From contig WTXI01000073.1 in NCBI GenBank assembly GCA_022376515.1, forward strand, positions 62,001 through 126,000: a stretch of 64,000 bases of DNA. Reading direction: 5' to 3'. The position numbers and the translations under genes are program-made. Below are positions 1,068 through 53,661 of this stretch, one piece after another. This DNA is from Lactifluus volemus. Lineage: Eukaryota; Basidiomycota; Agaricomycetes; Russulales; Russulaceae. The notes under the pieces are model-generated. The model was not told the DNA's origin. It did no database searches and was given only the letters and a program-made list of their open reading frames with translations. How positions within the stretch are numbered: position 1 is the stretch's first letter; each line of letters starts with the position of its first letter.

Positions 1068-4000
1068 ATGTCTTCGATTAACGATGCTACTGTCCCTTCT
1101 CCCAACTTGCAACTAATTCTTTCTGCCGCATTGGCAAACTACTCGAAGCAGACAGGGAGAGACCTCCGGAGTGATCCACTATCTACCGAATTCCAACTTT
1201 GCAAGTCCCCCGATGATATCTTGAACGTTTTAAAAAAGCACGCAGAGAAGCTCGACAAGAATGACGAATCGAAATTGATGAAATACCTCAACCACATCGT
1301 AGATGGCTTGTATACTTTATCGACCAATCCGGTCCTTAGCGCAGGTGTTAGTCTAGTAAGTCAAACCAGTTGTCTGTTTCACTATTACTATATCTTGACG
1401 ATTATTTTAGGCATTCCCTCCCGCATCAATGGTCTTTTCTGGTATCGGCATCCTTCTCGCGGTGCGTTTTTGCCTTGTCATGTCTAATTACCTATTCATG
1501 ACATGTGGGTGCATTAGGCTGCCAAGGGCGTCAAGGATGGTCACGATACGCTCATCGATGTCTTTGAATGTCTCGAAAACTTCCTCATGCGCCTCACAAG
1601 TTATACTCGACCCGAGATCGAACCTACTCCGGTGATGACTGAAATACTGGTCAAGATTTTGACCGAGTTCCTTTCTGTACTCTCCCTCGCAACAAAGTGG
1701 ATGAATGAGGGACGGCTCAGTACGCTCTTCCTTTCTAACGACTTTTTTCACTCAACTTTTCACAGAGAGATTTGCAAAGAAGCTACTCGGCGACAATGAT
1801 GTCCAGGCGGTGTTAAGGAGGATCGACAGGCTCACGCAAGAGGAGTCTCGGGCAACCGCAGCACAGACTTTCGAGATTATCCATGGTCTCGTGAAGAATA
1901 TGGGGGTAGTGATGGAAGGTGCGGCTCATACATGAATCCTCTGACCATGTGTTTGGTATTTAACCTCATCTGATTAGATGGAAAGGCATCTACGGAAGGC
2001 ATTCAGCAGGCATTAGGTACGTCCAACTGGCATTTGAGAACGAACCGTTTTAAGTTATGGGCGCAAGTCCTCATGCAACGTGCAGCAGAGCAAATAAACA
2101 AGACGAACCGTTTGTATCTCCATACAGCCTCCTTTTGGACATTGATTCTGAAATGGCTACCATAGGTGACCAATTACAAGAAAACTTTCGACGTTGGCTA
2201 TCTCCTCCGGATCCGTCCACCAATCACAACATTGCTCGCGAGGCGCATCGCGATGGCACCGCATCGTGGTTTATTCAAGGAGACACCTTCAAAGAATGGA
2301 AAACGACAGGTTCACTTTTATGGATACATGGAAATCGCAAGTTTATCTTGCCGTTTCCTGTCTTTATTACTGATTCTCCTGTATTCTAGCCGGTTCTGGA
2401 AAGAGTGTACTGTGGTATGTGATTGCGCTGTTGTCTGAATGGTTTACTCACCTCTTTGGAAAGTTCGACGATCATTCAGGAGATCCAAAACTTGCATGAT
2501 GCTGGGCTGGCTACTGTCGCATATTTTTATCTCGACTTTCGTGACGCTTCGAAGCGGGACGCCCGCGGCTTGTTGTCTTCTCTTCTTATTCAATTCTGTG
2601 CTCAGTCCGATCCTTTCTGTGAAATCCTCTCTGACCTCTACTCAAAACATAATCGCGGATCTCAACAACCCAGTGGCGATGCGCTTTTACAATGTTTGAA
2701 GAAGATGCTCGAACTTCCGGGGCAAGGCCCACTTTACATCATCATCGACGCACTAGATGAATGCCCGAGCTCATCGGGGTTCCCTACACAACGCGAGCGA
2801 GTCCTCAAGGATGTGCAAGAGCTCGTCAAGGTCCCACATCCATGTCTACATCTCTGCATCACCAGCCGACCAGAGATAGATATCCGAGCCGTTCTCGAAC
2901 CCCTAGCAGTCCACAAGATCTCTCTCCACAACGAATCTGGACAGAATCAGGATATTATCGACTACATTCACTCTGTGGTTCGCTCTGACCCGAAGATGCG
3001 AAAGTGGAGAGAAGAGGACAAGATATTGGTAATTGATACCCTCACACTCAAAGCTGGCGGAATGTAAGCTGTAATTGAGGTTGTTATTTTAGAGTTCGTG
3101 CTTACACGATGACATAGGTTTCGATGGGTGCACTGCCAAATCGAAACATTGCGTCGGTGCTTTCCTCAAAGTATCAAGCGGGCGTTGAATGAGTTGCCAA
3201 GGACTCTGGACGAGACGTATGACCGGACTTTGCAAGACATCGATGAGGAGAAGCGGGGCTACACATATCGGCTATTCCAATGCCTCACAGTATCCGTTCG
3301 TCCACTTCATGTGAAGGAGCTCATCGAGGTGCTTGCGATCGAATCAGACGCGGAGACGATGCCCGGATTTGATGCGGATTGGCGTCCCGAGGATGCAGAA
3401 GAAGCTGTGATGTCGGCGTGCTCTACGTTAGTCGCCATTGTCGAGGACCACGGTTCTAAAGTTGTCCAGTTCTCGCACTTCACTGTGAAGGAGTATCTGA
3501 CATCAAGTCGGCTGGCGAACTCAAATCTTGTTTCGCACTATCACATTCCTCTATTATCTGCGCATACGTTTCTCGCACAGGCTTGCCTTTGCATACTCCT
3601 CCAACTCGATGATACCATAGACGAAAATCGCATCAAGGATTTCCCCCTGGCTGAATATGCAGCGCAGTACTGGGTTGATCATGCACAATTCAAGGACGTA
3701 TCATCACATATCCAAGATGAGATGGACCACCTCTTCGACAAAGATAAACCACATTTCGCATGCTGGGTCTGGTTATACGACATCGATAAACCCTGGATGT
3801 TATTTCCGTTCACCAGTTCCAGTTCCCCGGGGCAACCCGATGCATTCCCACTATATTATGCCGCGCTTTGCGGATTCCGCGATACAATAGAACGTCTAAT
3901 CGGTACAAGCTCAGAAGATGTCAACGCTAGGGGCGGAATGTGCGCGACTCCACTGCACGCTGCGTCGGCCAGAGGTCATCTGGAAGTTGTCCTTTTCCTG

Positions 4001-5275
4001 CTGGAGAACGGTGTTGATGTGGATACTCGGGACAACGACGGAGCAACTCCCTTACACGTGGCATCGAGATCTGGGGATGCCAGGACCATGAGAGTGCTAC
4101 TTGACCACGGCGCAGATCCAAACTCGGTGACTGACCGAAAGATGACTTCATTGTTAATCGCGTCAGAGCACGGAGACGTGGTGGCCGCCAGACTGCTATT
4201 GGAGCATGGCGCTGACATGAACCTCCGGGATGAGGATCATTGTAGCCCTTGTTGAGACGGGCCGGTAGCGCGGGAACATTCCCGGGCAGTACGGACAGTG
4301 TCACGGACCGGATCTAACTGGTCCAAGTGTACAATGTAGATATTCGTAGATAATTGATTAATACATTCTTTACCATTGTGCACGCTCCCTATTCTCTCAG
4401 AAAGGACAATGATGGCATTATGTTTATTGTACATCTATTGTATGAGGCCCTAGGCCAATGCACGCTCCTTCTATGTATTTAAAGGACATTTCCCAGCTGC
4501 TATCACTTCAGTCTCTTACACATCGACTGAAGTGAGTATTACGATTACATCATCTTTTACCTTATTTGGACTCACGCGACTTTTACTTAGCGCTATCTTA
4601 TCTAGGTAAATTATGATTATGAAATATAGTCTCTTACACATCGACTGAACGCTATCTTATCTAGCGTTATCTAATCTACCTCAGCCGCTGCATTTCATCA
4701 GCCCTCTCCAGATAGCATCGAAATGGGGGCATTGCGACATTGCACAATTATTATTCGATCACGGTGCGACTGCCGACGAACAGGACAAATATGGCTGGGC
4801 TCCATTACACGTTGGATCGTATTACGGACAACTTGCGATTGCACGGATGCTCATTGAGCGTGGTGCAAGCGTGGATCCTCGGGCTGGGAGGAAGAGGACC
4901 CCCTTGCACTATGCGTCTCAATCGGAATACGCGGAGGTTGTGCGGCTGTTGCTTGACCGTGGTGCTGATGTGAATGCACAGGATGACGATCTCTTCACCC
5001 CGTTGCACTTCGCGGCACAAGGAGGATGTTTCCAGGTTGCCGAGGTTCTACTTGAGCGTGATGCAGATCTGGATCTCCAAAACAAGCAAGGCTTTTTGCC
5101 TTGGAAAGTCGCTATGGAGCGGCGTCACCACAAACTTGCGGAACTACTAGCAAAGCGCGCTGGTGAGGAGACATGGCTATCATGGAAGCAGGACATCGAG
5201 TTCGTACTCATGCTGTGGAGTAAAGTCTTAAGTTATGCCGGGTTAGGAATGGTGGAATCATGTGAAAGCTGTTAG
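1068..5275 (+). pseudogene. NLR1: Goodbye-NACHT-ankyrin gene interrupted by a solo LTR
   Basis: Paralog of NLR2 (see that entry for domains). Exons by homology and splice sites: 1068-1355, 1411-1461, 1518-1719, 1766-1918, 1978-2016, 2068-2109 (42 nt), 2166-2336, 2390-2414 (25 nt, P-loop), 2464-3063 and 3118 onward. The intron after 2336 begins GC instead of GT (GC-AG type). Walker A reads PGSGKS; Walker B is IIIDALDE. Exon 10 runs through about four ankyrin repeats, then enters a solo LTR at 4250 and stops at 4253-4255, giving a truncated product of about 902 aa. The remaining ankyrin repeats resume in frame after the LTR at 4706 and reach a stop at 5273-5275; that tail is about 30 residues longer than in the other copies. 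The N-terminal receptor half could still be expressed. Confidence 0.85.
4250..4700 (+). mobile_element. Solo LTR (451 bp) inside NLR1 ankyrin exon
   Basis: The element begins TGTTGAGACGGG, ends TTTCATCA (TG...CA ends), and is flanked by the 5-bp target duplication GCCCT (4245-4249 and 4701-4705). Removing the element and one GCCCT restores the ankyrin reading frame seen in the paralogs, so the boundaries are firm. It holds a TATTTAAAGG-like box near 4477 and an internal 21-bp direct repeat (about 4511-4531 and 4629-4649). No internal retroelement sequence remains, so it is a product of LTR-LTR recombination. Its family differs from the copia and gypsy LTRs later in the window. Confidence 0.9.
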
Positions 5276-5535
5276 TACCCTCACTGTCATGTGGAGCAGT
5301 TAAATACCAGCTACTTCCGTAATCTAACCTCTCCGTCCCCAATTGCTTCCTCAGCATTCTCTCGTTTTCCTCTGAGTTGCTGAATTTAAATTCACTTTTA
5401 CAGTAGGTGTTGGATCGAAGACAGCCTAGTTCATTGATGATTTGGAACCCTGGTGCTGATAAACAAGAAAGGTGTATTCCTAGCCTCGCTACAAGACCGT
5501 GACATTCTCTAGAGGACCGGATTAGAGTTGCGGGT
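5276..5535 (+). repeat. NLR 3' tag after NLR1
   Basis: Non-coding sequence with a motif string (GTTGGATCGAAGACAGCC, then CTGGTGCTGATAAACAAGA and GTGTATTCCTAG, then TCTCTAGAGGACCGGA) that recurs after NLR2, after the FunK1 pseudogene and, more diverged, after NLR3, NLR5 and NLR6. It probably holds the 3' UTR and polyadenylation region. Confidence 0.6.
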
Positions 5536-6884
5536 TCACAGGACAAGCGATAAAGGAATGTGTGATAGAAATTTCCCGGCCTCTCCTTAGCAATGTAAAC
5601 GAATCTCCGCATTGAATCAACAAATGCAGCCGAAACCTTAGACCAAATACATTCATGTAAGATAAAGAACGGAGGCTTGTGTGACAACTAAATCGACAGG
5701 TCAACATATGCTAGAGATGCAGCCATATCCACAGCGCGCACGTCTACCTATGTAAATCTAACAGTCTACCCAAGTAACCCAACCAATCCCATATGGGTGC
5801 TATGTTCACGACTAATCGCATAGTCGGGTTCTGGAAAAGCCACATGTCAGCAACTCGAGGGAGTGAGCGCCCATCCAACCATGAACTAACACAAACCTTC
5901 CTAAACTCCTCCACCCTGCAATCGTAACTCCTATCCTACAAAATCCGCGTACGGCCCCTGAACTGTAATTAGATGGAGCACAGGTCCCGCAGGAACCTCC
6001 AACCCAGGACCTCCCCGGCAGAGCCGCACGACCGTGCGCGATGTGCGGTGCGGTGGGTCCCCAGACGGGTGACACAAGGGGCATAATGGGAACTGGGTGG
6101 AGGCGGGAAGAAAAATCTCAGATGAGCAGCGCGCGTTGACGTGAAGACAACGGTTGCTTACGACGTCCGCATACACGTGGATGACCTGAACACTACTTCC
6201 GAGGTCCTTTACGGGTGCAAGGGTGGATGGCGGCGGCTGCAGCTGGAATCGCTTCAGAGATGGCGTATTGGTGTTTTCCCTCACCCCAGGCAACGCTCGT
6301 CTGTAGCCGTGACACAAACGAGATCAATTTAGGCGTGGTGGGCTGCTCTTGCTGCTGGTTGGACCACGGAAACTTGTCCACCTGTCGGTGGTTGAGAGGG
6401 CACGCATGAGCAGGGTGGCTGCGCTGGAGCCAGTTCAAGTACAATCTATACTTTAAATCTGTGATGCTGGTCCAAAATAAATAAATAAACGGACTTTCGT
6501 CATTAGCGCAATTGGAAGAAGACGCACATAGGTCGATATCCGTGGCGGGGTGGATGTCTCTGCAACCCTCATCCGTGTGTGAGCATAGGCCCTGTAGGCG
6601 GCATGATCAATGAGAACGCGTGTTACGCATGAGGGAGATGTCTCTGAATCAGGTCTCGCCGGGTTGAGGCAACTAGTTTCCAACCAAAACCTAAACCCAA
6701 TCTTCAGGTTAGGTTCAGCGCCAATTCGCCATTCGCTGATACTGAAATCCAAAGCTCCTCCACCTTCCTGCCTCTTCACTTCAATGTATATTGGCTAGCC
6801 ACCGGCGGCCATGACTAGTTGGCGATGATGACGAGGACAGCTATGGTGTGGAGGTAGCGTCATACCTTCGCCCCTTCAACATAG
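5536..6884 (-). repeat. Degenerate spacer repeat between NLR1 and NLR2
   Basis: No intact gene. Segments around 5990-6070 (CAGACGGGTGACACAAG), 6160-6190 (CGCATACACGTGGATGA) and 6370-6700 have diverged relatives at 14280-14960, 19470-19830, 27345-27740 and 47760-48480. Read on the minus strand, several segments keep similar peptides between copies, for example AAYRAYAHTRM here and ATYRAYVHPM at about 48340, but with stops and shifts. This fits a decayed antisense gene or an old mobile element. Positions 6735-6884 match the start of the NLR upstream block. The 5536-5800 part shows nothing recognisable. Confidence 0.5.
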
Positions 6885-8095: not shown

Positions 8096-11000
8096 ATGTC
8101 TTCGATGAACGATGCGGCTTCCCTTTCTTCCAACTTTCCACCCATTCTTAGTGCCGCCTTGGCCAACTACTTGATGCAGACAGGGAAAGACCTCCAGAGC
8201 GATCCACTGTCCGCTGAAATCCAACGTTGCAATTCCCCCAATGAAATCCTGAATGTATTCAAGAAAATTGTCGAGAAGTTGGATGAATATAGCCGTGACG
8301 ACTCGAAATTGACGAGATACTTGAATCACATTGTGGATGGTATGTATGCCTTATCGACCAATCCGGGCCTGAGTGCAGCTGCTAGTCTAGTATGTCAAAG
8401 AAAATTCGTCTTTCCACTATTGATGCATATTGACGCATTTTTTAGGCGTTCCCCCCCGCACAACTAGTCTTTTCTGGTATCAGCATTCTTCTCGCCGTGC
8501 GTGTTTGCCTTGTTATCTCTTATCACATTTTTTATCTCTGGGTCTATTAGGCTGCAAAGGGCGTCAAGGGTAGCCACGATACGCTTGTCGACGTCTTTGA
8601 GTGCTTCGAAATTTTCCTCACGCGCCTCACAAGTTATACTCGACCCGAGATCAAACCTACACCGGCGATGACTGAAGTATTGGTCAAGATATTGACTGAG
8701 TTTCTTTCTGTACTCTCTCTTGCGACAAAATGGATGAATGAGGGACGGCTCAGTACGTTTCTCTTTTCTTCTCATAGCTACTTTGGTCCAACATTCCCCA
8801 GAGAAATTTGCAAAAAAACTACTCGGCGACAATGATGTCCAAGCGGTGTTAAGAAGGATAGATAGGCTCACGCAGGAGGAGTCTCGGGCAACTGCAGTGC
8901 AGACTTTGGAGATTATCCATGGCCTCGTGAATAATATGACGGTTGTGATGGAAGGTGCGGCTCATACCCGAATCCTATGACATTGTGTATGGTACTTAAT
9001 CCTTATCTGATCAGATGGAAAGGCATCTATGGAAAGCATTCGGCAAGCATTAGGTACGCCCAACTGATTTATGAGAACGAAAAGGTTTAAACTGTTGCCT
9101 CAAGTCCTTATGCAACGTGCAGCAGAGCAAATCAACAAGACGAACCGTTTGTACCCTCATCCTGCCTCATTCTGGATGTTGATTATTAAGTGGTTACCAT
9201 AGGCGACCAATTACAAGAAACTTTTCGACGTTGGCTGTCTCCTCCGGATCCGTCCACCAACCACAATATTGCTCGCAAGGCACATCACGACGGTACTGCG
9301 TTGTGGTTTATTCAGGGAGACACTTTCAAAGAATGGAAAGTGACTGGTTCACTTTTGTGGATACATGGGAACCGTAAGGATCTCTCCAAATTGTGGGTCT
9401 TTCTAAGACTGATAGTCTCCTGTACTGTAGCCGGTTGTGGAAAGAGTGTCCTGTGGTACGTGATGAATCAGTCACCCTTGCCTGAATGACGCGCTCACTC
9501 CCTTGAGAAGCTCAACAATTATTCGGGAAGTTCAGGACCTGCACGACGCTGGGTTGGCCACCTTCGCCTATTTTTATTTCGACTTTCGTGATGCTTCTAA
9601 GCGGGACACCCACAGCTTCTTGTCATCCCTTCTTGTTCAAATCTGTGCTCAATATGATCCCTTCTGTGAAATTCTCTCTGCTCTCTACTCAAAATACGAC
9701 CATGGATCTCGACAGCCTAGTGATGATACGCTTTTAGAATGCTTGAAGAAGATGTTCGAGCTTCCAGAGCAAGGCCCACTTTACCTGATTATAGATGCAC
9801 TAGATGAATGCCCAAATTCGTCAGGGTTCCCTACACAACGCGAACAAGCCCTTGATATTGTGCAGGAGCTCGCCAATCTCCCACTTCCATATCTACATCT
9901 CTGCATCACCAGCCGTCCTGAGATGGACATCCGAGGTGTTCTTGAACCCCTAGCAGTCCACAACATCTCTCTCCACAATGAATCTGGACAAAACCAGGAT
10001 ATTATCGATTACATCCACTACGTGGTTCGCTCGGACCCGAAGATGCGAAAATGGAGAGAAGACGATAGGGTATTGGTAATTGATACCCTCACACTCAAAG
10101 CTGGCGGGATGTAAGCTGTGATCGAGTATTTCATAGTGGGTGCTCACACGATGAGACAGGTTTCGATGGGTCCATTGCCAAATCGAAACATTGCGTCGGT
10201 GCTTTCCTCAAAGTATCAAGCGGGCATTGAATGAGTTGCCAAGGACTCTGGACGAGACGTATGACCGGACTTTGCAAGATATTGATGAGGAAAAGCAGGG
10301 ATACACATATCGTCTATTCCAATGTCTCACAGTATCTATTCGCCCACTTCGTCTGAAGGAGCTCGTCGAGGTGCTTGCGATTCAATTAGACGCGGAAACG
10401 ATGCCCGGATTTGATGCGGATTGGCGCCCCGAGGATGCAGAGGAAGCTGTAATGTCAGCGTGCTCTACTTTGGTCACCATTGTCGAGGACGGTTATTCTA
10501 AATTCGTGCAATTCTCGCACTTCACTGTGAAGGAGTATCTGACGTCAAGTCGGCTGGCAAACTCAAGGCTTGTTTCGCAGTATCACATTGCTCTACTGTC
10601 CGCACATACATTTCTCGCACGGGCTTGCCTTTGCATACTCCTCCAACTCGATGACACAATGGACAGAAATCACATTGAGGACTTCCCCCTGGCTCAATAT
10701 GGAGCGCGGTACTGGATTGGACATGCTCAGTTCGAAAGTGTATCATCGCTTATCCAAGATGAGATGGACTACCTCTTCGACAAGGACAAGCCACATTTTG
10801 CATGCTGGGTCTGGTTATACGACATCGATAAACCCTGGATGTCACTTCCGTTCACCAGTTCCACTTCCCCGGGGCAACCCGATGCACTCCCACTGTATTA
10901 TGCCGCGCTTTGCGGTTTCCGCGATATTATACAACGTCTGATCAGTACAAGGCCAGAGGAGGTTCACGCTAGGGGCGGAAGGCACGTGACTCCACTTCAC

Positions 11001-11762
11001 GCTGCGCTGGCCAGAGGTCATCTGGAAGTCGTCCTTTTCCTGCTGGAGAACGGTGTCGATGTGGATACTCGGGACAACGAGGGAGCAACTCCCTTACACC
11101 TGGCATCGAGATCTCGGGATGCCAGGGTAATGACAGCGCTACTTGACCGCGGCGCAGATCCAAACTCGGTGACTGACCAAAGGAAGACTTCGTTGTTAAT
11201 CGCGTCGGAGACCGGCGACGTGGTGGCGGCCAGACTGTTATTGGAGTATGGCGCTGACATGAATCTCCGGGATGAGGATCATTGGAGTGCGCTCGAGAAG
11301 GCATCAGAATGCGGGAATGGCGACATTGTGCAGTTATTACTCGATCACGGCGCGAATGCCGACGAACAGGACGAATATGGCTTGGCTCCGTTGCACTTTG
11401 CATCGCGAATTGGACAAATTGCGATTGCACGGATGCTCCTTGACCGTGGTGCAAGCGTGAATATTCGGGATAGGAAGAATATGACCTCCTTGCATGTTGC
11501 GTCGGAATTGGGATATGTGGAGGTTGTGCGGCTGTTGCTTGACCGTGGTGCTGATGTGAACGCACAGGATGACAACCTCTTCACCCCGTTGCACGTCGCG
11601 GTTCAATACGGTCATTTCCAGGTCGCCGAGGTTTTACTCGAGCATGACGTGAATCTGCATCTTAAAAACAACAGCGGGAAGACGCCTTTGCAAGTCGCTT
11701 TGGAGTGGTCTGACGACGAACTTGCGCAATTACTATCAAAGCGCGCTGGTGAGAGGACATAG
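8096..11762 (+). CDS. NLR2: intact Goodbye-NACHT-ankyrin STAND protein (1059 aa)
   Basis: Ten exons: 8096-8389, 8446-8496, 8551-8752, 8802-8954, 9015-9053, 9105-9146 (42 nt), 9203-9373, 9431-9455 (25 nt), 9511-10110 and 10160-11762, totalling 3180 nt in frame. Residues about 15-125 match the fungal STAND Goodbye domain (ALANY..TGKDLQ.DPL...I..C.S, then SL.FPPA...FSGI.ILLA). The NACHT ATPase spans about 310-530: Walker A NPGCGKS, Walker B LIIDALDE near 420, sensor CITSRPE near 457. A winged-helix-like region (LDETYDRTL to FSHFTVKEYL) follows, then nine ankyrin repeats at about 769-1055. No signal peptide or membrane segment is seen, so it should be cytosolic. Family knowledge: such proteins are signal-sensing ATPases, with ankyrin repeats as the likely ligand sensor. 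The ligand and the role in defence or self/non-self recognition are inference. The ATG is chosen because it opens the Goodbye domain in all six copies. Confidence 0.9.
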
Positions 11763-12244: not shown

Positions 12245-14140
12245 AATGTCCACGCCTAGCATGAGTTTCGACTCGGGGGCGCCATCCTCAGATTCCTCAC
12301 GAGAAATACAAATTTCAAGGGCTGCTTGTGGTCTCACACCCTCAATTCTAGGCCCCGTGCCCGCTCGAGAATTTCTTTCGAACTTCCTTTCCTCCGAAAA
12401 TCGGTCACCCCGGGGGCTCCATCTGCGTTTAGGAAAGGCATTTTCGATGATCTAGTGGAGTTATTTGATGGAGGAAGGATCTGTATGAACCATTCGTGAG
12501 TCATTAAGTTTTTTTAACTCATGGCCCGGGCCTAGTAGTGAACACGGGGAATTCAATTTCCAGTCAAACCCAATTGCGTTGCATACAGCAGAGAAAGCGG
12601 AGTGGTTACTGGGTGTGATCTCTCCAAGGCTGAGTTCATCGTGGAGTTCCCTTCCACATCCCGGCAGAGAAGCTTGCACAACACGTCATCAAGAAACCAC
12701 GCAAGGTGTCTGTTGTTGTCAAGAGTTCGGCTCACGCTACGGATACAATCTGTCAGATTGCGAGATACGTCACTATCTAAATGAGGTTGCAATACCGAAC
12801 GCACTGTTTTCTTGTGCTTGTCATTCAGCATTACGCTCGCCTCATGCGTTGGGATCGCAAGTGGGATCGTTTTCAGTGAACCCGTCTAATACAACGACCG
12901 CCTCGAATTCCCGGAGTTCTTCGAGGCTTACAACGGGGAGACTCATGAAGAACGGGGCAGTGACCAGTTTGTGACCAAGCTCTCTGATGACGAGATTCGT
13001 ACTACCCTCGAAACCTGTCCGGATCGTAGCGACGGCCCTATGCCCTTGCTGGCCGTCTCACTCCACAACGAGGATCTCCATTCAAAGCCTCGTCGCTACA
13101 TCATCAACAGCCCTCATCTGTAACCTCCCGTCATTACCCCCTAGGGTTCGACACGCACGTCGGTTGCTTATGACCTCGAGAGGAAGAAGCGCGTTTTCCT
13201 GACCGATTCATGGCGGTATGTAGCAGACGGCGTCAAGCCGGAGGGAAAAGTTTATCAAATGCTTCATCAGGGCAACGTCAAGGATATCCCTTTGTGCGTG
13301 GACTTCTGCGATGTGGGTGAGGTGAGGTACCACCAAACACAAACTCGACTTTTTTTCCGAAGCGGGTTTGCTCCCGGGGGGTTGAAACTATCTACCCCAG
13401 TACTTCGATATCATCGCTTGATTCTGGATACCGTGGGCAAGAAATTCGATGAATTTTCAACAGAGGGTCCGCGCTGCGTTAGTCGGTGTGAGGCTTACCA
13501 TTATGTTTTCATTTCTGGACGCTGACACCACTTCTATAGCTCACAAGAAGGCTTACTTACTTGGTGTGCTTCATCGTGACGTCAGTCCCGCCAACATTAC
13601 GATAACGAATGACCGTCCCTTTGACAGGGGATTACTTATCGACTGGGACCTATGCAAGGTCAAGGATGATGGTCATATAAACGATAACGAGGCTGGTCTC
13701 AGTACGTGTAACTCTTCGATGCTATTTAAATTAATGCGGAGCTCAGCCCATAGGGCACATGGAAGCACATGGCCGCAGATTTTATTTGTAACCCCATTAT
13801 CACGCAAACGTTTACCCATGATCTCGAATCTGCATTCTATGTCCTCTTATCTATTACCCTTCTCATTCTTGGGCGCAGGGGACACTCCAGTTTTGCCAAC
13901 AGTGAAGTCTTGAATCCACAAAGATACGGAAACTTGAACGATAACTCGATTGAGGCACCCAGACACGTGGGTTCGCAAACGAGGGTTTTTCTTACGCGAT
14001 GACACTTCCTTACGAGACTGGGAGGTCTTATCCAATAAGCCGTTCACGAGCTTGTTACGCACTCTCGAAGACGTCATCGCAAAAAGGCACAAGTCCACCC
14101 CCTATCGAGGCATGTTGGTGAAGGGACATGGGTATCATGG
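12245..14140 (+). pseudogene. FunK1-type fungal protein kinase, degenerate
   Basis: Kinase landmarks appear in order but in different frames. They are an N-terminal start (MSTPSMSF at 12245, with PAREFLSNFL), FRTH-like YRTHCFLVLVIQHYARLMRWD near 12790-12860, EFPEFFEAYNG near 12905, VAYDLERKKRVFLTDSWRY near 13160-13220, GVLHRDVSPANI (catalytic HRD) near 13563-13600, LLIDWDLC near 13630-13655, and THDLESAFYVLL near 13810-13850. DWD at the DFG position and the HDLES motif are typical of the FunK1 family (PF17667). In-frame stops lie just before the YRTH segment and after FSEPV at about 12890, with frameshifts between MRWD and SGIVF and elsewhere, so it is very probably not functional. Phosphotransfer by FunK1 proteins is inferred from the fold; substrates are unknown. 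It is flanked by NLR-type promoter and 3' sequences. Confidence 0.8.
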
Positions 14141-38983: not shown

Positions 38984-38989
38984 AAACCC
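38983..38989 (-). promoter_or_regulatory. Programmed -1 ribosomal frameshift heptamer at the gag stop
   Basis: The minus strand reads G GGT TTT TAG in the gag frame: the canonical slippery heptamer GGGTTTT directly followed by the gag stop codon. A one-base backward slip gives GGG TTT TTA GGC and enters the open protease frame without a stop. Sequence is direct; use is inferred from the known X XXY YYZ rule. Confidence 0.75.
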
Positions 38990-40359: not shown

Positions 40360-41231
40360 TGAAGTCATCCGCTTTCTGTCTATCTCCATCGAAGATGGTG
40401 GGTGGTCGTCCAGTGGGCGCCCCCATGAGGTAGCCTGGCCCTGGCATTGGCCCTTGTGGCAGTCCGCCTCCTGGGGGTCCTCCTCCTGGGGGCCCGGCCG
40501 GGGGCCAGCCTGGGGGTCCTCCTCCATGAGGTGGGCCTTGAGGTGGTCCTTGAGGTGGGCCTTGAGGTGGTCCTTGAGGCAGGTCTGGGGGCGGTGCTCC
40601 CCCCTGGTTGAGCACCCATCCTTGGTCGACGACTGGGGGAAGTGGTCCTTCTCCTCTTATCGCTTGGTTGGCCATAACCGTTGGTGCTTCGGTCATGGTT
40701 GCTCTGACTTGTATCGGCTCTGGTTCTATTGTGATGGCGTCCACCTGTTCTGCGAGGTGGGTCATCGGGGTGTTTGCTGGTGGTTCTTGGTAGGAGTGGG
40801 TGGACAAGGGAGTTGTCGGTTCTGGTTCCCCCGTGCTCCCATCGTCTTCACTGTCCTCTCTTATTGCGTTAAGAGCGCGATTGTTTGGGTGTTGGGCGTC
40901 GGTTTCATGCCACCATCCTGCTCCTGCTGCTTCATTGAGTCTGAGTGCGGGGCAGGATTTAAGTATTTCGTGGTGGCGCAGTACGGCGTGCCAGACGTCG
41001 TTGATGAATTCTACGCGGACTGATTCTCCTTCCTGCGCGACGCAGTAACACCGGTCTGTGGGGTTCCAGTATATACCGCCTTTCACATGTGCAGGTAAAT
41101 CATCGTTGTATCGGGTGGGCACTGGGATCAGTGTTTCGTCATCGGGGAATTCTATTCTGAGGAGGGTCGCGCTCATATTGCAACTGCAAGTACGCTGACT
41201 TCTGAGGCAGTTCTGGCAAAGGGATGAGAAT

Positions 41232-41498
41232 CTAGGCGCCGTCGTGTTCTAATTCTGGGTCAAGCGTTTCCAATAGGATCGTCTCGCTTCTGTAGTCTTC
41301 TAGACTGTCGCTCAGGATCTCGTCTGCTTGTTCAATGGTTTGAACAAGTTCGTGGAGTTCTGTCAGGAGCCTTCGCTTCTTTTCACCTGTAGCTAGGTCG
41401 AGTAGAAGGAGTACCGTGAAGTATTCTTTCTCCGCGGAGATCTGGATGGCGAGCGCCTCTACCAGATGTTCAATGCGGTCGTTCAGGGGTTCTGCCAC
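41232..41498 (-). CDS. Small ORF between the gypsy primer site and gag (88 aa)
   Basis: It opens 19 nt after the primer site and ends 55 nt before the gag ATG. It is strongly charged and looks helical or coiled-coil (IEHLVEALAIQ, TELHELVQTIEQADEIL). It may be a leader peptide or a separate accessory protein. I do not recognise a family. Confidence 0.5.
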   Translation of the reverse strand: MAEPLNDRIEHLVEALAIQISAEKEYFTVLLLLDLATGEKKRRLLTELHELVQTIEQADEILSDSLEDYRSETILLETLDPELEHDGA

Positions 41499-41516
41499 CT
41501 TTCAGTGGTGTGTGGG

Positions 41517-41527
41517 AGCTTGGACTT
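41517..41527 (-). promoter_or_regulatory. Self-primer binding site of the gypsy element
   Basis: One base inside the 5' LTR, the sense (minus) strand has AAGTCCAAGCT. Its exact 11-nt complement AGCTTGGACTT lies in the LTR at 41712-41702 on the sense strand, starting 29 nt beyond the TATATAA box (41747-41741), that is at the expected transcription start. This is the arrangement of Tf1/sushi-type elements, whose own RNA 5' end primes reverse transcription. Confidence 0.75.
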
Positions 41528-41528
41528 A

Positions 41529-41972
41529 TGTTAGGGACTAGCTGTTCCTAGTTCCTAAGATAGGATCAAGTTGTTCAGAAGGGACCAACAGAGACGCGAG
41601 TCTAAGTTGGGTCTAGCTAAGTTATAGCACTTAGAGGGCTTCAAGAGGAGAGGGGATCACAAGGGGTTTGTGAGGAGATTCAAGAGGCTAGTATTGGAGA
41701 GAAGTCCAAGCTGGAGAGCAAGGACATAAGACAAGACGTCTTATATACTGTACAGGGCAAAGGGCGAGTGACATCAGTAATGATGTCATGAGCCTGGGTC
41801 TAACTACGACATCATCGAAGTTCTAGGCTAATGATGTCATAAGGGTCACTATGAGTCAAGAACACACCGTTCCATGTCGTACAAGGTGAGGCTCTGTCCG
41901 TAAGCGAGAATGTAGACGGAAATGAAAAACATGAGGTAACAGAGAGGCAGAGGTCCAGACAAATCCGTAACA
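41529..41972 (-). repeat. gypsy 5' LTR
   Basis: 444 bp. Promoter on the minus strand: TATATAA at 41747-41741. Upstream of it (about 41770-41845) are several TGATGTCA-like palindromes. Confidence 0.93.
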
Positions 41973-42605
41973 GTACATACTGAGTGTCCATTATCTTCTT
42001 CATGACGTGCGCTTGGGCGTGTGTCCCAAGTTGCTCGTGGCGTGTTCGGAGTGCTTCATAAACGAGGTGTGCGGTTGGGAGTTTGTCGACGATGTCGTAA
42101 TCAAATCGGGATATGTGCTGTAGAATGAAAGAACAGAGGGAGCCATCGTTGGTCCACCAGACCCAGCATATTTTCGGGCTACTAGTAGTCGGGTCGGGGC
42201 AGGTTAAGGTGCCGTCCAGCCAAGAGGATAAACCTTGTCGGAGTGCAAGAAGTTCAAGACGCCGGCTCCATTCCTGCCAGTTCGAAGTTTGCAGGTCGAG
42301 GGTCAGGGAAGTGGGCCAAGTGGGGTCAGAGATGAATATCAGAGTGAGCGGTATGTCATCTGGTGAGAGTATCGGGCGAGTCGGTACAGTGGGAACAGGG
42401 GCGGTCTGAGGATTGTTTGACTGTGAGGTTGTTTGGTTCGTGGCTGCGCTCGTGTTTGCGCCGGCTTGATTCGTATTGGTTGAGGTCTGAGTTGGTCCTT
42501 GATTCGTGGACGAAGACATAATAATTACGTATTGGGTGGGACTAGATTATGATGCTGATAGTGAAGTCTAAGCGCGAGTGATAGTGAGGGCCAGGGCCCA
42601 TAACC

Positions 42606-42771
42606 TAAAGTAAATGGAACTGTGACATGATCACGGCGTGATAGTAAGGGAGAAGAGAATAATCGATTACACCCCAAACTGTGCTGTTTAAGTACTTGTA
42701 AGGATGGTACAATTCATGTGATAATGTTAATGACGTGCGATGCCAGTGACGTCACATCACAAATCTCAATA
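42606..42771 (-). repeat. copia 5' LTR
   Basis: 166 bp, one base longer than its partner. The sense strand then reads GGTTATGGGCCCTGGCCC, the place of the primer binding site. TGACGTCA lies at 42747-42754. Confidence 0.88.
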
Positions 42772-43633: not shown

Positions 43634-46600
43634 ATGTCTTCGGCCAACGGCGCTGCTGTCCCTTCTCCCAACTTGCAACTCATTCTCAGTGCCGCCTTGG
43701 CAAACTACTCGAAGCAGACAGGGAAAGACCTTCAGTGTGATCCGCTATCTACCGAAATCCAACGTTGCAAGTCCCCCGATGATATCTTGAACGTTTTGAC
43801 GAGGCACGCAGAGAAGCTGGACAAGAATGACGACTCCAAATTGATGAAATATCTGAATCACATCGTGGATGGCTTGTATAGCTTATCAACCAATCCGGTC
43901 CTTAGCGCAGGTGCTAGCCTAGTAAGTCAAACCAGGTTTGTCTGTCTACTGTTGCTGTATCTTGGTGGTTATTGTAGGCATTCCCGCCCGCACAAATAGT
44001 GTTTTCTGGTATCAGCGTCCTTCTCGCCGTGCGTGTTTTCTTTGTCATATCTAATTACCTATTCATGACATCTGGGTCCATTAGGCTGCCAAAGGCGTCA
44101 AGGATGGTCACGATACGCTCATCGATGTCTTTGAGTGCCTCGAAAACTTCCTCATGCGCCTCACGAGTTATACTCGACCCGAGATCGAACCTACTCCGGC
44201 GATGACCGAAATTCTAGTCAAGATTTTGACCGAGTTCCTTTCGGTACTCTCCCTCGCGACAAAGTGGATGAATGAGGGACGGCTCAGTACGTTCTTCCTT
44301 TCTTAGAACTTCTTTGGCCTAACTTGCCACAGAGAAATTTGCAAAGAAGCTACTTGGCGACAATGAGGTCCAGACGGTGTTAAGAAGGATCGATAGACTC
44401 ACGCAGGAGGAGTCTCGGGCAACCGCAGTACAGACTTTGGAGATTATCTGTGGTCTCGTGAATAATATGACGGTAGTGATGGAAGGTGCGGCTCATACCT
44501 GAATCCTATGACCATGTGTATGGTACTTAATCGTTATCCGAGTAGATGGAAAGGCATCTACGGAAGGCATTCGGCAAGCTTTAGGTGTGCCCAACTGATA
44601 CTCCAGAATGAAATGTTTTAACCTGTGGGCCCAAGTTCTCATGCAATCCGCGGCAGAGCAAATCAACAAGGCGAACCGTTTGTGTCTCATACTGCCTCCC
44701 TTTGGACGTTCAATCTGACGTAGCTACCATAGGTGACCAATTACAAGAAAGATTTCGACGTTGGCTATCTCCTCCGGATCCATCCACCAACCACAATATT
44801 GCTTGCAAGGCACATCATGATGGTACTGCATTGTGGTTTATTCAAGGAGACACCTTCAAAGAATGGAAAGAGACTGGTTCACTTTTATGGATACATGGGA
44901 ACCGTAAGTATCCCTCCCAATTGTGAGTCTTGCTGCGTCTGATAGTCTTCTGTATTGTAGCCGGTGCTGGAAAGAGTGTGCTGTGGTACGTGATCAGTCT
45001 GTCACGGCTGCCTGAATGATGCACTCACTCCCATGAGAAGCTCAACGATCATTCAGGAGGTTCAGGACTTGCGCGATGCTGGGTTGGCCACCTTCGGGTA
45101 TTTTTATTTCGACTTTCGTGACGCGTCTAAGCGGGACACCCGGAGCTTGTTGTCATCGCTTCTTATTCAATTCTGTGCTCAATCTGATCCCTTCTGTCAA
45201 ATTCTTGCTGGTCTCTACTCGAAATACGATCATGGATCTCGACAGCCTAGTGACGATGTGCTCTTACAATGCTTGAAGAAGATGCTCGAACTTCCAGAGC
45301 AAGGCCCACTTTACCTGATTATAGACGCACTGGATGAATGCCCAAATTCGTCTGGCTTCCCTACACAACGCAAACAAGCCCTTGATATTCTCCAGGAGCT
45401 TGTGAACATCCGACTTCCATGTCTACATATCTGCATCACCAGTCGTCCTGAAGCAGACATCCGGGCCGTTCTCGAACCCCTAGCAGTCCATAACATCTCT
45501 CTCCACAACGAATCTGGACAAAACCAGGATATTATCGACTACATCCACTCTGCGGTTCGCTCGGACCTGAAGATGCGAGGCTGGAGAGAAGAGGATAAGA
45601 TATTGGTGATTGACACACTCACACTGAAAGCTGGCGGGATGTAAGTTGTGATCGAGTTGGTTATATCATAGTGCATGCTCACGCGATAACCTAGGTTTCG
45701 GTGGGTCCACTGCCAAATCGAGAGGTTGAGTCGGTGCTTTCCGCAGAGCATCAGACCAGCGTTGAATGAGTTGCCAAAGACTCTGGACGAGACATATGAC
45801 CGGACTTTGGAAGACATCGATGAGGAGATGCGGGGATACACATATCGCCTATTCCAATGCCTCACAGTATCCGTTCGCCCACTTCGTGTGAAGGAGCTCG
45901 TCGAGGTCTTTGCGATTGAGCTGGATGCGGAAGCGATGCCCGGATTTGATGTTAATTGGCGCCCCGAGGATGCAGAGGAAGCTGTGATGTCTGCATGCTC
46001 TACTTTGGTCAGCATTGTCGAGGATCACGGTTCTAAAGTCGTGCAGTTCTCGCACTTCACTGTGAAAGAGTACCTGACCTCAAGTCGGCTGGCGAACTCC
46101 GATCTTGTTCCTCATTATCACATTCCTCTATTGTCCGCACATACATTCCTCGCACGGGCTTGCCTTTGCATTCTACTTCAACTAGATGACACAATGCACA
46201 AAAGTCGCATCAAGGACTTCCCCCTGGCTGTATATGCAGCACAGTACTGGATTTATCATGCACAGTTCGAGAGTGTATCATCGCTTATCCAAGATGAGAT
46301 GGACTACCTCTTCGACAAAGATAAACCACATTTCGCATGCTGGGTCTGGTTATACGACATCGATAAACGCTGCCAATCATTTCCGTTCCCAAGTTCCCCG
46401 GAGAAACCCGATGCACTTCCACTGTATTATGCTGCGCTTTGTGGATTCCGTGATATAATAGAACGTCTAATCGATACAAGCCCAGAAGATGTCAACGCTG
46501 GTGGCGGAACGCACGTGACTCCACTTCACGCTGCGTCGGCTAGAGGTCATCTGGATGTTGCGGTTTTCCTGATGGAGCACGGCGCTGCTTTGAATGCTTG

Positions 46601-47294
46601 GGACTACGAAGGACACACTCCATTACACTTGGCATCGATATCTCGGCATGCCAGTGTCATAGGAGCGCTACTTGGCCGCGGCGCAGATCCAAACTCGGTG
46701 ACCAGAAATAAGGAGACTTCATTGTTAATCGCGTCGGAGCACGGAGACCTTGCGGCCGCCAGGCTGCTATTGGAGCATGGCGCTGACTTGAATCTCCGGG
46801 ATGAGAGTCATTGGAGTCCTCTTTTCAAGGCATCGGAAAACGGGCATTGCGACATTGCACGATTATTATTTGAACACGGCGCGAATGTCAACGAACAGAA
46901 CATATATGGCCTCACTCCATTACACTGTGCATCGGGTAGTAGACAACTTGCGATTGCGCAGATGCTCATTGATCGTGGTGCAAGCGTGGATCTTCGGGCT
47001 CTGCTGAACGATACCCCTTTGCACTATGCGTCGGTATCGGGATACGTGGAGGTTGCGCGGCTGTTTCTTGACCGTGGTGCTGATGTGAACGCACAGGGTA
47101 TGGATCTACTCACACCGTTGCATTTAGCGGCAGAAGGTGGACATTTCCAGCTTGCCGAGGTACTACTAGAGCACGGGGCGGATCTGGATCTCCAAAACAA
47201 GAAGGGCCAGACGCCTTTGCAAGTCGCTTTGGGGCGGTCTGACGACGAACTTGCGCAATTACTATCAAAGCGCGCTGGTGAGGAGGGGGCGTAG
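43634..47294 (+). CDS. NLR5: intact Goodbye-NACHT-ankyrin STAND protein (1056 aa)
   Basis: Exons: 43634-43921, 43978-44028, 44085-44286, 44333-44485, 44546-44584, 44636-44677 (42 nt), 44733-44903, 44961-44985 (25 nt), 45041-45640 and 45695-47294; 3171 nt in frame. Same domains as NLR2 with Walker A PGAGKS. By eye it is closest to NLR6: both have VLMQ followed by S or Y in the 42-nt exon, ILAGLYSKYDHGS in the NACHT, and IERLSRCFPQSI at the start of the last domain. Nine ankyrin repeats; several differ from NLR2 at the helix positions that usually contact ligands. The copia-gypsy stack sits 0.86 kb upstream and splits its upstream block but not the proximal CACGTG region, so expression may persist. 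Confidence 0.9.
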
Positions 47295-50001: not shown

Positions 50002-53000
50002 ATGTCTTCGGTTAACGATGCTGCTGTCCCTTCTCCCAACTTGCAACTCATTCTCAGTGCCGCCTTGGCAAACTACTCGAAGCAGACAGGGAAAGACCTT
50101 CAGTGTGATCCACTATCTACCGAAATCCAACGTTGCAAGTCCCCCGATGATATCTCGAACCTTTTAAAGAAGCACGCAGAGAAGCTCGATAAAAGCGACG
50201 ACTCAAAATTGATGAAATATCTGAACCACATCGTGGATGGCTTGTATAGCTTATCGACCAATCCGGTCCTCAGCGCAGGTGCTAGCCTAGTAAGTCAAAC
50301 CGGGTTTGTCTGTCCACTGTTGCTGTATCTTGACGGCTATTGTAGGCATTCCCGCCCGCACAAATAGTGTTTTCTGGTATCAGCGTCCTTCTCGCCGTGC
50401 GTGTTTTCTTTGTCGTGTCAAATTACCTATTTATCACATCTGGGTCGATTAGGCTGCCAAAGGCGTCAAGGATGGCCACGATACACTTGTCGATGTCTTT
50501 GAGTGCCTCGAAAACTTCCTCATGCGCCTCGCGAGTTATACTCGACCCGAGATCGAACCCACTCCGGCGATGACCGAAATACTAGTCAAGATTTTGACCG
50601 AGTTCCTTTCGGTACTCTCCCTCGCGACAAAGTGGATGAATGAGGGACGGCTCAGTACGTTCTTCCTTTCTTAGAACTTCTTTGGCCCAACTGTCCACAG
50701 AGAAATTTGCAAAGAAGTTACTTGGCGACAATGATTTCCAGGCGGTGTTAAGAAGGATCGATAGACTCACGCAAGAGGAGTCTCGGGCAACCGCAGTGCA
50801 GACTTTGGAGATCATCTGTGGTCTCGTGAATAATATGACGGTAGTGATGGAAGGTGCGGCTCATACCTGAATCCTATGACCATGTGTATGGTACTTATTC
50901 CTTATCCGAGTAGATGGAAAGGCGTCTACGGAAGGCATTCGGCAAGCTTTAGGTGTGTCTAACTCATACTTCAGAATGAAACGTTTTAACCTGTGGGCCC
51001 AAGTTCTCATGCAATACGCGGCAGAGCAAATCAACAAGGCAAACCGTTTGTGCCTCATACTGCCTCCATTTGGACGTTGATTGTGACGTAGCTACCATAG
51101 GTGACCAATTACAAGAAAGATTTCGACGTTGGCTATCTCCTCCGGATCCGTCCACCAACCACAATATTGCTTGCAAGGCACATCATGATGGTACCGCGTT
51201 ATGGTTTATTCAAGGAGATACCTTCAAAGAATGGAAAGAGACTGGTTTGCTTTTATGGATACATGGGAACCGTAAGTGTCTCTCCCAATTGTGGGTCTTG
51301 CTGCGTCTGATAGTCTCCTGTATTGTAGCCGGTTGTGGAAAGAGTGTGCTGTGGTACGTGATGTGTCTGTCACGGCTGCCTGAATGATGCACTCACTCCC
51401 ATGAGAAGCTCAACGATCATTCAGGAGGTTCAAGACTTGCGCGATGCTGGGTTGGCCACCTTCGGGTATTTTTATTTCGACTTTCGTGACGCGTCTAAGC
51501 GGGACACCCGGAGCTTGTTGTCATCGCTTCTTATTCAATTCTGTGCTCAATCTGATCCCTTCTGTCAAATTCTTGCTGGTCTCTACTCAAAGTACGATCA
51601 TGGATCTCGACAGCCTAGTGACGATGTGCTCTTACAATGCTTGAAGAAGATGCTCGAACTTCCAGAGCAAGGCCCACTTTACCTGATCATAGACGCACTG
51701 GATGAATGCCCAAATTCGTCTGGGTTCCCTACACAACGCAAACAAGCCCTTGATATTGTCCAGGAGCTTGTCAACATCCGACATCCATGTCTACATGTCT
51801 GCATCACCAGTCGTCCTGAGGCAGACATCCGTGCCGTTCTCGAACCCCTAGCAGTCCATAACATCTCTCTCCACAACGAATCTGGACAACACCAGGATAT
51901 TATCGACTACATCCACTCTGTGGTTCGCTCAGACCTGAAGATGCGAGGCTGGAGAGAAGAGGATAAGATATTGGTGATTGACACTCTCGCACTCAAAGCT
52001 GGTGGGATGTAAGTTGTGATTGACTTGGTTATACTATAGTGCGTGCTCACATGATGAGATAGGTTTCGGTGGGTCCACTGCCAAATCGAAAGGTTGAGTC
52101 GGTGCTTTCCCCAGAGCATCAGACGAGCGTTGAATGAGTTGCCAAAGACTCTGGACGAGACATATGACCGGACTTTGGAAGACATCGATGAGGAGATGCG
52201 GGGATACACATATCGCCTATTCCAATGCCTCACAGTATCCGTTCGCCCACTTCGTGTGAAGGAACTCGTCGAGGTCTTTGCGATTGAGCTGGACGCGGGA
52301 ACGATGCCTGGATTTGATGCAAATTGGCGTCCCGAGGATGCAGAGGAAGCTGTGATGTCGGCATGCTCTACTTTAGTCACCATTGTTGAGGACGACGGTT
52401 CGAAAATTGTGCAGTTCTCCCACTTCACTGTGAAGGAGTATCTGACATCAAGTCGGCTGGCGAACTCAAATCTTGTTTCTCACTATCACATTCCTCTACT
52501 GTCCGCACATACATTCCTCGCACGGGCTTGCCTTTGCATACTACTTCAACTAGATGACACAATGGACGAAGGTCGCATCAAGAATTCCCCCTGGCTAAAT
52601 ATGCAGCGCAGTATTGGATCAATCATGCACAGTTTGAGGGTGTATCATCGCTCATCCAAGATGAGATGGACTACCTCTTTGACAAGGACAAACCACATTT
52701 TGCGTGCTGGCTCTGGGGATACAATATCGATCTACCCTGGAAGTCATTTTTTTTCACTGGTTCCCTGAAGAAACCCGATGCACTCCCACTGTATTATGCT
52801 GCGCTTTGCGGTTTCCGCGATACAATAGAACGTCTAATCTATACAAGCCCAGAAGATGTCCACGCTAATGGCGGAACGCACGTGACTCCACTCCACGCTG
52901 CGTCGGCCGAAGGTCATCTGGAAGTTACGCTTTTCCTACTGGATCACGGTGCTGATTTGAATGCTCGGGACAACGACGGAGAAAATCCATTACACTTGGC

Positions 53001-53661
53001 ATCGAGATCTCGGCATGCCAGGGTCATAAGAGCGCTACTTGGCCGCGGCGCAGATCCAAACTCGGTCACTGACCGAAAGAAGACTTCATTGTTAATCGCG
53101 TCGGAGCACGGAGACCTTGTGGCCGCCAGTCTGCTATTGGAGCATGGCGCTGACTTGAATCTCCGGGATGAGTGTAATTGGAGTCCTCTCGAGAATGCAT
53201 CGTTTTACGGGCATTGCGACATTGCACAATTATTATTCAATCACGGCGCGAATGCCAACGAACAGGACGAATATGACTTTTCTCCATTACACATTGCATC
53301 GTATTGTGGACAACTTGCGACTGCACGGATGCTCATTGAGCGTGGTGCAAGCGTGGATCTTCGGACTCGGGGGAACGAGACCCCTTTGCACATGGCGTCG
53401 ATATATGGATTCGTGGAGGTTGTGCGGCTGTTGCTTGACCGTGGTGCTGATGTGAACGCACAGGATGAGGCTGTACTCACCCCGTTGCATTTAGCGGCAG
53501 AATATGGACATCTCCAGGTTGCCGAGGTTCTACTCGAGCATAGGGCGGATCTGGATCTCCAAAACGAGAATGGCCAGACGCCTTTGCAAGTCGCTTTGGG
53601 GAAGTCTCACGACGAACTTGCGCAATTACTATCAAAGCGTGCTGGTGAGGAGGAGGCGTAG
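50002..53661 (+). pseudogene. NLR6: Goodbye-NACHT-ankyrin gene with one-base deletion
   Basis: Exons: 50002-50289, 50346-50396, 50453-50654, 50701-50853, 50914-50952, 51004-51045 (42 nt), 51101-51271, 51329-51353 (25 nt, PGCGKS), 51409-52008 and 52063-53661. Exon 10 is 1599 nt where NLR3 and NLR5 have 1600. Near 52580-52590 this copy reads CATCAAGAATTCCCC where NLR5 has CATCAAGGACTTCCCC, so a single base is missing. Translation then leaves the family frame and stops at 52768, giving a Goodbye-NACHT protein without ankyrin repeats. The ankyrin half (52666-53661) is open and undamaged, so the deletion is recent or a sequencing error. If real, the product could still act as a sensor-less or regulatory form. 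Confidence 0.85.

What the first reader, a model, noticed from the sequence alone, without database searches (positions are those of the whole stretch)
1068..53661. Tandem array of six Goodbye-NACHT-ankyrin receptor-like genes, three intact and three broken in different ways
All six copies keep the same ten-exon structure and domain order on one strand over 53 kb. NLR2, NLR3 and NLR5 are open. NLR1 is cut by an LTR, NLR4 by a poly(A)-tailed element and NLR6 by one missing base. This is a clear picture of birth and death in a fungal NLR-like family, and the breaks are fresh enough that the rest of each frame is still readable. An immune or self/non-self function is inferred from the family.
Basis: partly seen in the sequence, partly recalled or inferred. 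Interest (0 to 1): 0.75.

Follow-up and report, generated by a model that had tools for sequence, protein, structure and literature searches.

The report
Fast-evolving fungal immune-receptor gene cluster
A probable mushroom-forming fungus carries a row of related immune-type receptor genes whose presumed binding surface changes unusually fast, and two versions of the row in the same genome assembly show which genes are broken on one version only.

Summary
Six Goodbye-NACHT-ankyrin genes lie on the + strand, ten exons each. NLR2, NLR3 and NLR5 are open (1052, 1053, 1049 aa). NLR1 is cut by a solo LTR, NLR4 by a poly(A)-tailed non-LTR element with a 14-bp target duplication; NLR6 has a one-base frameshift. 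Pfam scores all three domains above cut-off.

The picture is larger. The six are a slice of an 11-copy cluster on contig C600. Contig C468 carries a collinear second version with nine one-to-one partners, most likely the other haplotype. The two insertions and the NLR6 frameshift are absent there. The NLR6 partner is open; the NLR1 and NLR4 partners are broken by other lesions. In all, 8 of 20 copies are broken.

Goodbye and NACHT are under purifying selection (dN/dS about 0.2). In the ankyrin repeats positions 2, 3, 5, 10, 13 and 14 vary most, with pN/pS 1.53 (2.95 between NLR5 alleles); five of these vary in designed ankyrin binders. A second array has the same six, with weaker ratios. One allele carries an ankyrin block like a neighbouring locus's.

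Best reading: a diversifying receptor cluster resembling plant R-gene clusters. Immune function is inferred.

The parts
1068..5176 (+). NLR1, ten exons, interrupted in exon 10 by the LTR at 4254-4700; intron 7 has a GC donor; usual stop codon absent
4254..4700 (.). Solo LTR in NLR1, 5-bp target duplication AGCCC; C468 has no LTR here. 16 other full-length genome matches at 99%, ten of them in five pairs about 5.2 kb apart
5188..6878 (.). 1691-bp segment present in C600 only, just 3' of NLR1; no clean target duplication
8096..11762 (+). NLR2, open, 1052 aa, ten exons; partner on C468 open, ankyrin part conserved between the two
13422..13913 (+). Fragment matching Pkinase_fungal (PF17667) between NLR2 and NLR3
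15190..18852 (+). NLR3, open, 1053 aa, most divergent paralogue; partner 99.0% identical
20260..26548 (+). NLR4, interrupted in exon 9 by the poly(A)-tailed element; C-terminus rewritten, shared with its partner
22163..24795 (-). Poly(A)-tailed non-LTR element, 2633 bp, 14-bp target duplication; C468 has the empty site; three contigs carry its two ends about 7.6 kb apart
28197..42770 (.). 14.57-kb insertion in C600 only, terminal 170-bp repeats 99.4% identical, with nested 449-bp repeats (33642-34090 and 41527-41975, 99.8%) and a reverse transcriptase ORF
43634..47294 (+). NLR5, open, 1049 aa, ten exons; Goodbye aa 20-142, NPHP3_N/NACHT aa 282-463
46404..47291 (+). Ankyrin-coding part of NLR5 (aa 754-1049); identity to the partner 87.0% in the last 890 bp against 94.2% in the rest of the gene and about 97.5% in both flanks
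50002..53661 (+). NLR6, one-base frameshift in exon 10; partner on C468 open

Best explanation
This is part of a tandem cluster of fungal NLR (STAND) genes in a probable Russulales basidiomycete, seen on two haplotypes. Shown: Goodbye-NACHT-ankyrin architecture; conserved Goodbye and NACHT; excess amino-acid change at ankyrin positions 2, 3, 5, 10, 13 and 14; an identity pattern that points to exchange of an ankyrin block between neighbouring loci; repeated loss of copies by insertion, frameshift, nonsense change and truncation. Inferred: C468 is the other haplotype, the ankyrin concave face binds a varying non-self ligand, NACHT acts as a nucleotide-controlled oligomerisation switch, and the Goodbye helical domain then starts a cell-death or defence response. 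The tandem layout feeds new binding faces by unequal exchange and gene conversion while individual copies die. If two diverged versions share one cytoplasm in a dikaryon, sensing foreign organisms or elements is more likely than sensing the partner nucleus.
For: Domains over cut-off. Eleven copies on C600 and nine on C468, no others at 80% identity or more among the 150 scored of 623 candidates. Collinear nine-pair alignment with empty sites for the C600 insertions. Mean dN/dS over all pairs of the 12 open copies: Goodbye 0.21, linker 0.09, NACHT 0.19, post-NACHT 0.21, ankyrin 0.65. pN/pS at the six positions 1.53 (bootstrap 1.24-1.94) against 0.55 elsewhere in the repeat; NLR5 pair 2.95 (1.46-10.82) against 0.99. 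Repeats of a solved designed ankyrin differ at 2, 3, 5, 13, 14 and 33 while most other positions are fixed. Second array: the same six positions on top, ratio 1.60 (0.94-3.09). In NLR5 the last 890 bp are 87.0% identical between versions, the rest 94.2%, the flanks 97.5-97.6%. The B3 ankyrin part is A2/NLR1-like.
Against: No expression, ligand, structure or phenotype for any copy. Not every locus diversifies: the ankyrin part is no more diverged than the rest in A1, A2, NLR2, NLR3 and NLR4 or only slightly so, and NLR2 ankyrin dN/dS is 0.25. Position 33 of my prior set is not among the most variable, and with the prior set the second array gives only 1.20 (0.71-2.13). Around A3/NLR1 and after NLR6 the noncoding DNA is also strongly diverged (85.7 and 82.9%), so only NLR5 shows an ankyrin peak inside well-matched flanks. 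Recombination among copies can bias rate ratios. Allelism of C468 is not shown by read depth.
Confidence: 0.7

Rival explanations
1. C468 is not the other haplotype but a recent segmental duplication of the whole array within one nucleus.
For: The assembly is not fully phased: one polymerase-subunit match occurs twice (C1, C95) but two others once. No read depth is available. The C1/C95 pair is 99.05% identical over 4948 bp, closer than most of the array.
Against: Order and orientation match over nine loci, with insertions on one side only and empty sites on the other. A further NLR match about 43 kb upstream of the first copy on C600 has a 93.5% partner on C468 in the expected orientation; but on C468 it lies only 18 kb away, and two other such C600 matches were not compared. 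One other contig pair (C203/C445) carries equal-scoring matches, as leftover haplotigs would.
Confidence: 0.17
2. The ankyrin variability is relaxed constraint on exposed residues in a decaying family, not selection for new binding faces.
For: Eight of 20 copies are broken; exposed positions are the least constrained in any ankyrin repeat (recalled). In the second array the bootstrap intervals include 1.
Against: Ratios exceed 1 at the six positions with bootstrap intervals above 1 in array 1 while Goodbye and NACHT of the same open copies stay near 0.2. In NLR5 the ankyrin DNA differs more between versions than the noncoding DNA on both sides.
Confidence: 0.17
3. The one-base breaks are assembly errors, so fewer copies are really broken.
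For: Four of the eight broken copies (NLR6, B1, B2, B4) rest on a one-base frameshift, though B2 also has an in-frame stop. NLR6's lies beside a run of C.
Against: The LTR, the poly(A) element, the nonsense codon in the NLR4 partner and the missing exon 1 of A1 are unlikely to come from base-call slips.
Confidence: 0.25
4. The cluster is a somatic-incompatibility (het-type) system that recognises other individuals of the species.
For: Some NLRs, het-d and het-e, do this in Podospora (abstract of PMC12222747 in the listing). Divergence between the two versions is high at some loci.
Against: If both versions share a dikaryon, strongly different alleles coexist without self-killing; Auxier and colleagues argue that direct allelic or non-allelic recognition does not fit that life cycle (passages of PMC8229728).
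Confidence: 0.2

Closest known systems
Fungal NLRs as surveyed by Dyrka et al. 2014 (PMC4986451; passages seen, one from the abstract)
   Same: N-terminal effector domain, NACHT, ankyrin repeats; positive selection mostly on the ankyrin concave face; Goodbye-like is one of their effector classes
   Different: Their selected repeats are highly conserved internally with changing repeat number. Here internal repeat identity averages 34-38%, repeat number is fixed among the open copies, and change comes by point substitution and apparent block exchange between tandem loci
Goodbye/HeLo/MLKL-like effector domains (PMC9815663; passages seen, one from the abstract)
   Same: The N-terminus matches the Goodbye profile; a Lactarius tabidus relative is modelled as helices there
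   Different: I could not test the four-helix-bundle relation: N-terminal model confidence is low and the fold search was filled by ankyrins
Plant NLR (R-gene) clusters (recalled)
   Same: Tandem arrays, presence/absence and null alleles between haplotypes, sequence exchange, diversifying selection on the sensor repeats
   Different: Ankyrin instead of leucine-rich repeats; fungal; no known ligand
Podospora het-d / het-e and other NLRs (passages; abstract)
   Same: NLRs with repeat sensors under diversifying selection
   Different: WD repeats and tested incompatibility there; ankyrin and untested function here

Membership tests
Fungal NLR (STAND) | Recognised N-terminal effector-type domain | tested here: met
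   Goodbye PF17109 57.2, 68.1, 69.2 bits against cut-off 24.8 in 3 of 3 spliced proteins
Fungal NLR (STAND) | NACHT-type nucleotide-binding domain with Walker motifs | tested here: met
   NACHT over cut-off in 3 of 3; GKS and DALDE motifs kept in 12 of 12 open copies, read by eye, motif names recalled
Fungal NLR (STAND) | C-terminal superstructure-forming repeats | tested here: met
Fungal NLR (STAND) | Ligand-triggered cell death or defence | not testable with these tools
   No expression or phenotype data
High-internal-conservation (HiC) repeat NLRs of Dyrka et al. | Repeats at least 85% identical over at least 100 aa | tested here: not met
   Internal repeat identity averages 34, 37 and 38%, maximum 48%, in NLR2, NLR3, NLR5; definition
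High-internal-conservation (HiC) repeat NLRs of Dyrka et al. | Repeat-number polymorphism between alleles | tested here: not met
   12 of 12 open copies, including 4 pairs of partners, align with the same repeats and small gaps only; 8 broken copies not tested
Two haplotypes of one locus | Collinear genes with one-sided insertions and empty sites | tested here: met
   Nine pairs in order; LTR, non-LTR and 14.57-kb insertions in C600 only
Two haplotypes of one locus | Half read depth and 1:1 segregation | not testable with these tools
   No reads or progeny held
DARPin-like binding face (analogy) | Variation concentrated at repeat positions 2, 3, 5, 13, 14, 33 | tested here: inconclusive
   2, 3, 5, 13, 14 are the top five in array 1 and within the top six in array 2; 10 joins them; 33 does not
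HET-S/NWD2 or het-e type incompatibility system | WD-repeat sensor | tested here: not met
   Repeats are ankyrin
HET-S/NWD2 or het-e type incompatibility system | Incompatibility phenotype | not testable with these tools
   No crosses or barrage data

The most novel reading that the evidence does not exclude
A basidiomycete maintains, in its two nuclei, two divergent versions of an NLR cluster that works as a repertoire of ankyrin binding faces: a fixed-length scaffold whose paratope positions are driven by selection and swapped between neighbouring loci, with some loci held constant (NLR2, NLR3) and others hypervariable (NLR5, the locus before NLR1). This would be a fungal counterpart of plant R-gene clusters, with a built-in split into conserved and variable receptors.
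Probability: 0.43. Interest if true: 0.78.

Novelty: new variant of a known kind. Interest (0 to 1): 0.6.

Why it matters
Fungal NLRs are many, but their ligands and their evolution outside Podospora are little known (my judgement). Two versions of one cluster separate conserved from variable receptors, order losses by presence or absence, and name the residues to test for ligand binding. That makes the question whether mushroom NLRs defend against foreign organisms or police conspecifics open to direct test. In the held library, my searches for NLR with Russulaceae and NACHT, NACHT with Russula and Lactarius, and fungal NLRs with tandem, paralogs and Agaricomycetes listed none, three papers with titles on other subjects, and the 2014 survey only.

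Tried and rejected
Considered and dropped: a firm copy-number difference of 11 against 9. C468 begins about 15 kb beyond the NLR6 partner, so partners of the last two C600 copies may lie in missing sequence; no other contig holds a copy at 80% identity or more among 150 scored of 623 candidates. The 1691-bp segment as a simple retroelement: its ends give no clean duplication. Position 33 as part of the variable face: not supported. A first figure for noncoding identity (96.2%) left out 5 of the 15 collinear blocks; with all 15 it is 95.6% over 16,501 positions, and I use that. Fold relation of the Goodbye domain to HeLo/MLKL: not tested, because the N-terminal model is weak and ankyrin matches fill the search; that none is listed says nothing against it. 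In the second array I had 7 loci of 24 match rows at 79% or more; one, L037, was left out of the rate counts because its frame stops. The eight broken copies were left out of all codon counts. The two DARPin papers (passages) do not print the position numbers; I took them from recall and then checked them against solved chains. Listings were otherwise used as listings only, except the passages named in the report.
Full report
What is in the window. Self-comparison shows six copies in direct orientation. I aligned them, set ten exons in NLR2, projected them on the others and corrected two acceptors and the NLR3 start. NLR2, NLR3 and NLR5 are open. Pfam finds Goodbye, NPHP3_N/NACHT and ankyrin above cut-off in the three spliced proteins. 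Of 668 relatives found, 120 are listed; every listed row that names an organism names Lactarius, Russula, Lactifluus or Multifurca, and the 120 rows are 34-58% identical. The host is therefore probably a Russulales fungus that is not itself well represented in that database.

The inserts. The NLR1 insert is a 447-bp LTR with 16 other full-length matches at 99%, ten of them in five pairs about 5.2 kb apart, so it is a solo LTR of a young family. The NLR4 insert ends in poly(A), lies between 14-bp direct repeats, and its family gives 74 match rows, with three contigs that carry its two ends about 7.6 kb apart, so it looks like an internally shortened non-LTR element. A third insertion of 14.57 kb lies between NLR4 and NLR5 and contains nested repeats and a reverse transcriptase ORF.

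The larger cluster. The window is C600:62001-126000. The NACHT exon finds 11 copies at 80% identity or more on C600 (46.5-146.7 kb) and nine on C468; the next match is 59% (150 of 623 candidates scored). Fetched stretches of C468 (12001-72000) align collinearly with C600:45449-116131 in nine one-to-one pairs. The LTR, the poly(A) element and the 14.57-kb insertion are absent from C468, with overlaps of 5-6, 14 and 5-6 bp at the empty sites. C600 also has an 853-bp insertion between A2 and A3, and C468 has its own of about 151, 456, 870 and 3382 bp; the last ends in poly(A) with a 15-bp overlap and sits about 40-50 bp upstream of the NLR6 partner's start. I read the two contigs as two haplotypes. 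The assembly is only partly phased, and read depth is not available.

State of the copies. C600: A1 (46k) lacks the first part of the gene, about 290 bp; A2 (51k) and A3 (58k) open; NLR1 broken; NLR2 and NLR3 open; NLR4 broken; NLR5 open; NLR6 broken; 139k open; 146k open by frame but with no AG at the projected intron-5 acceptor. C468: B1 frameshift in exon 7; B2 frameshift in exon 3 and an in-frame stop; B3 open; B4 (NLR1 partner) with its own frameshift; B5 and B6 open; B7 (NLR4 partner) with a nonsense codon; B8 and B9 open. So 8 of 20 are broken; of nine pairs, three are broken on both sides by different lesions, two on one side, four on neither. NLR4 and B7 share a rewritten C-terminus, which predates the insertion. 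Open copies of the same kind exist; I propose no mend.

Selection. Among the 12 open copies mean dN/dS is 0.21 (Goodbye), 0.09 (linker), 0.19 (NACHT), 0.21 (post-NACHT) and 0.65 (ankyrin). Pooled over seven 33-residue repeats, the highest non-synonymous rates are at positions 3, 14, 5, 13 and 2, then 10. For the prior set 2, 3, 5, 13, 14, 33 the ratio is 1.62 (1.28-2.11) against 0.56 elsewhere; for the observed set 2, 3, 5, 10, 13, 14 it is 1.53 (1.24-1.94) against 0.55. Between the NLR5 partners it is 2.95 (1.46-10.82) against 0.99. Between the NLR2 partners the prior set gives 0.39 (0.00-1.24), and between the NLR3 partners there is no change there. In a second array (six loci on C390 and C603) the six most variable positions are the same six. 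There the set chosen in array 1 gives 1.60 (0.94-3.09) against 0.52, the prior set only 1.20 (0.71-2.13) against 0.68, and the part of exon 10 before the ankyrins 0.22. Repeats of a solved designed ankyrin differ at 2, 3, 5, 13, 14 and 33 while most other positions are fixed.

Exchange and divergence between the versions. Over all 15 collinear blocks noncoding DNA is 95.6% identical (16,501 positions), but unevenly: 94-98% in most intervals, 85.7% between A3 and NLR1 and 82.9% just after NLR6. Last 890 bp of the gene (roughly the ankyrin part) against the rest: A1 95.3 and 96.3%, A2 98.2 and 97.4, A3 80.1 and 94.4, NLR1 83.2 (477 positions only) and 92.5, NLR2 97.1 and 94.7, NLR3 99.3 and 98.9, NLR4 96.4 and 96.1, NLR5 87.0 and 94.2, NLR6 90.5 and 94.7. 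So four of nine loci have a clearly more diverged ankyrin end; NLR5 is the clean case, with 97.5-97.6% in both flanks, whereas for A3, NLR1 and NLR6 the noncoding DNA beside the ankyrin end is diverged too or not well aligned. In A3/B3 the first two thirds are 95-96% alike, but the B3 ankyrin part is closest to NLR1 and A2 (90-95%) and only 76-85% like its own partner, which indicates exchange between neighbouring loci.

Mechanism. The anatomy fits a STAND receptor: ankyrin sensor, NACHT switch, Goodbye executor. Goodbye-like domains have been modelled as relatives of the HeLo/MLKL four-helix bundle, with their function left open (PMC9815663, passages). My own model of a Lactarius tabidus relative has mean pLDDT 77, confident in much of the NACHT and ankyrin parts but weak at the N-terminus; the search returned ankyrin domains. 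Sensing, switching and killing are inferred. Because diverged versions would share a dikaryon, I favour foreign targets over the partner nucleus, in line with the argument in PMC8229728 (passages).

What is known. Dyrka et al. (PMC4986451, passages) found positive selection mostly on the concave face of ankyrin repeats in a Podospora NLR with highly conserved, length-variable repeats, and a review states that fungal NLRs evolve by birth and death with frequent recombination (PMC10197012, passage). Here the repeats are not internally conserved and their number is fixed, so the mode differs: point change plus apparent block exchange in a tandem cluster seen on two haplotypes. I therefore file it as a new variant of a known kind. 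On checking I lowered two odds slightly, because noncoding DNA beside some loci proved as diverged as their ankyrin ends.

Noticed in passing
window 54277-55420: Long array of a 14-bp repeat unit just downstream of NLR6, where collinearity with C468 ends.
   Followed up: no
window 57400-63045: Region with a KDZ transposase match (60806-61357, minus strand) and a CxC2 match (61630-63042, minus strand); the 57.4-62.2 kb stretch has matches over its whole length at 100% (C10) and 98% (C325) elsewhere.
   Followed up: partly
window 13422-13913: Fragment matching a fungal protein kinase family (PF17667) between NLR2 and NLR3.
   Followed up: no
contigs C390, C603, C116: A second Goodbye-NACHT-ankyrin array, about 59% identical to this one in the NACHT exon; some loci on C390 and C603 are close (up to 97.6%) and may be partners; same variable ankyrin positions.
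   Followed up: partly
whole genome G000: 150 NACHT-exon matches (the number scored, of 623 candidates) in 62 Mb, many in runs on one contig (for example C445, C479, C579, C24, C5, C29).
   Followed up: no
L040-L041 (C468:19200-22581): 3382-bp poly(A)-tailed insertion with a 15-bp overlap, about 40-50 bp upstream of the start of the open NLR6 partner; it may affect expression.
   Followed up: partly
window 28197-42770: 449-bp repeats (99.8% identical) nested inside an element with 170-bp terminal repeats (99.4%), on C600 only; both look recent.
   Followed up: partly
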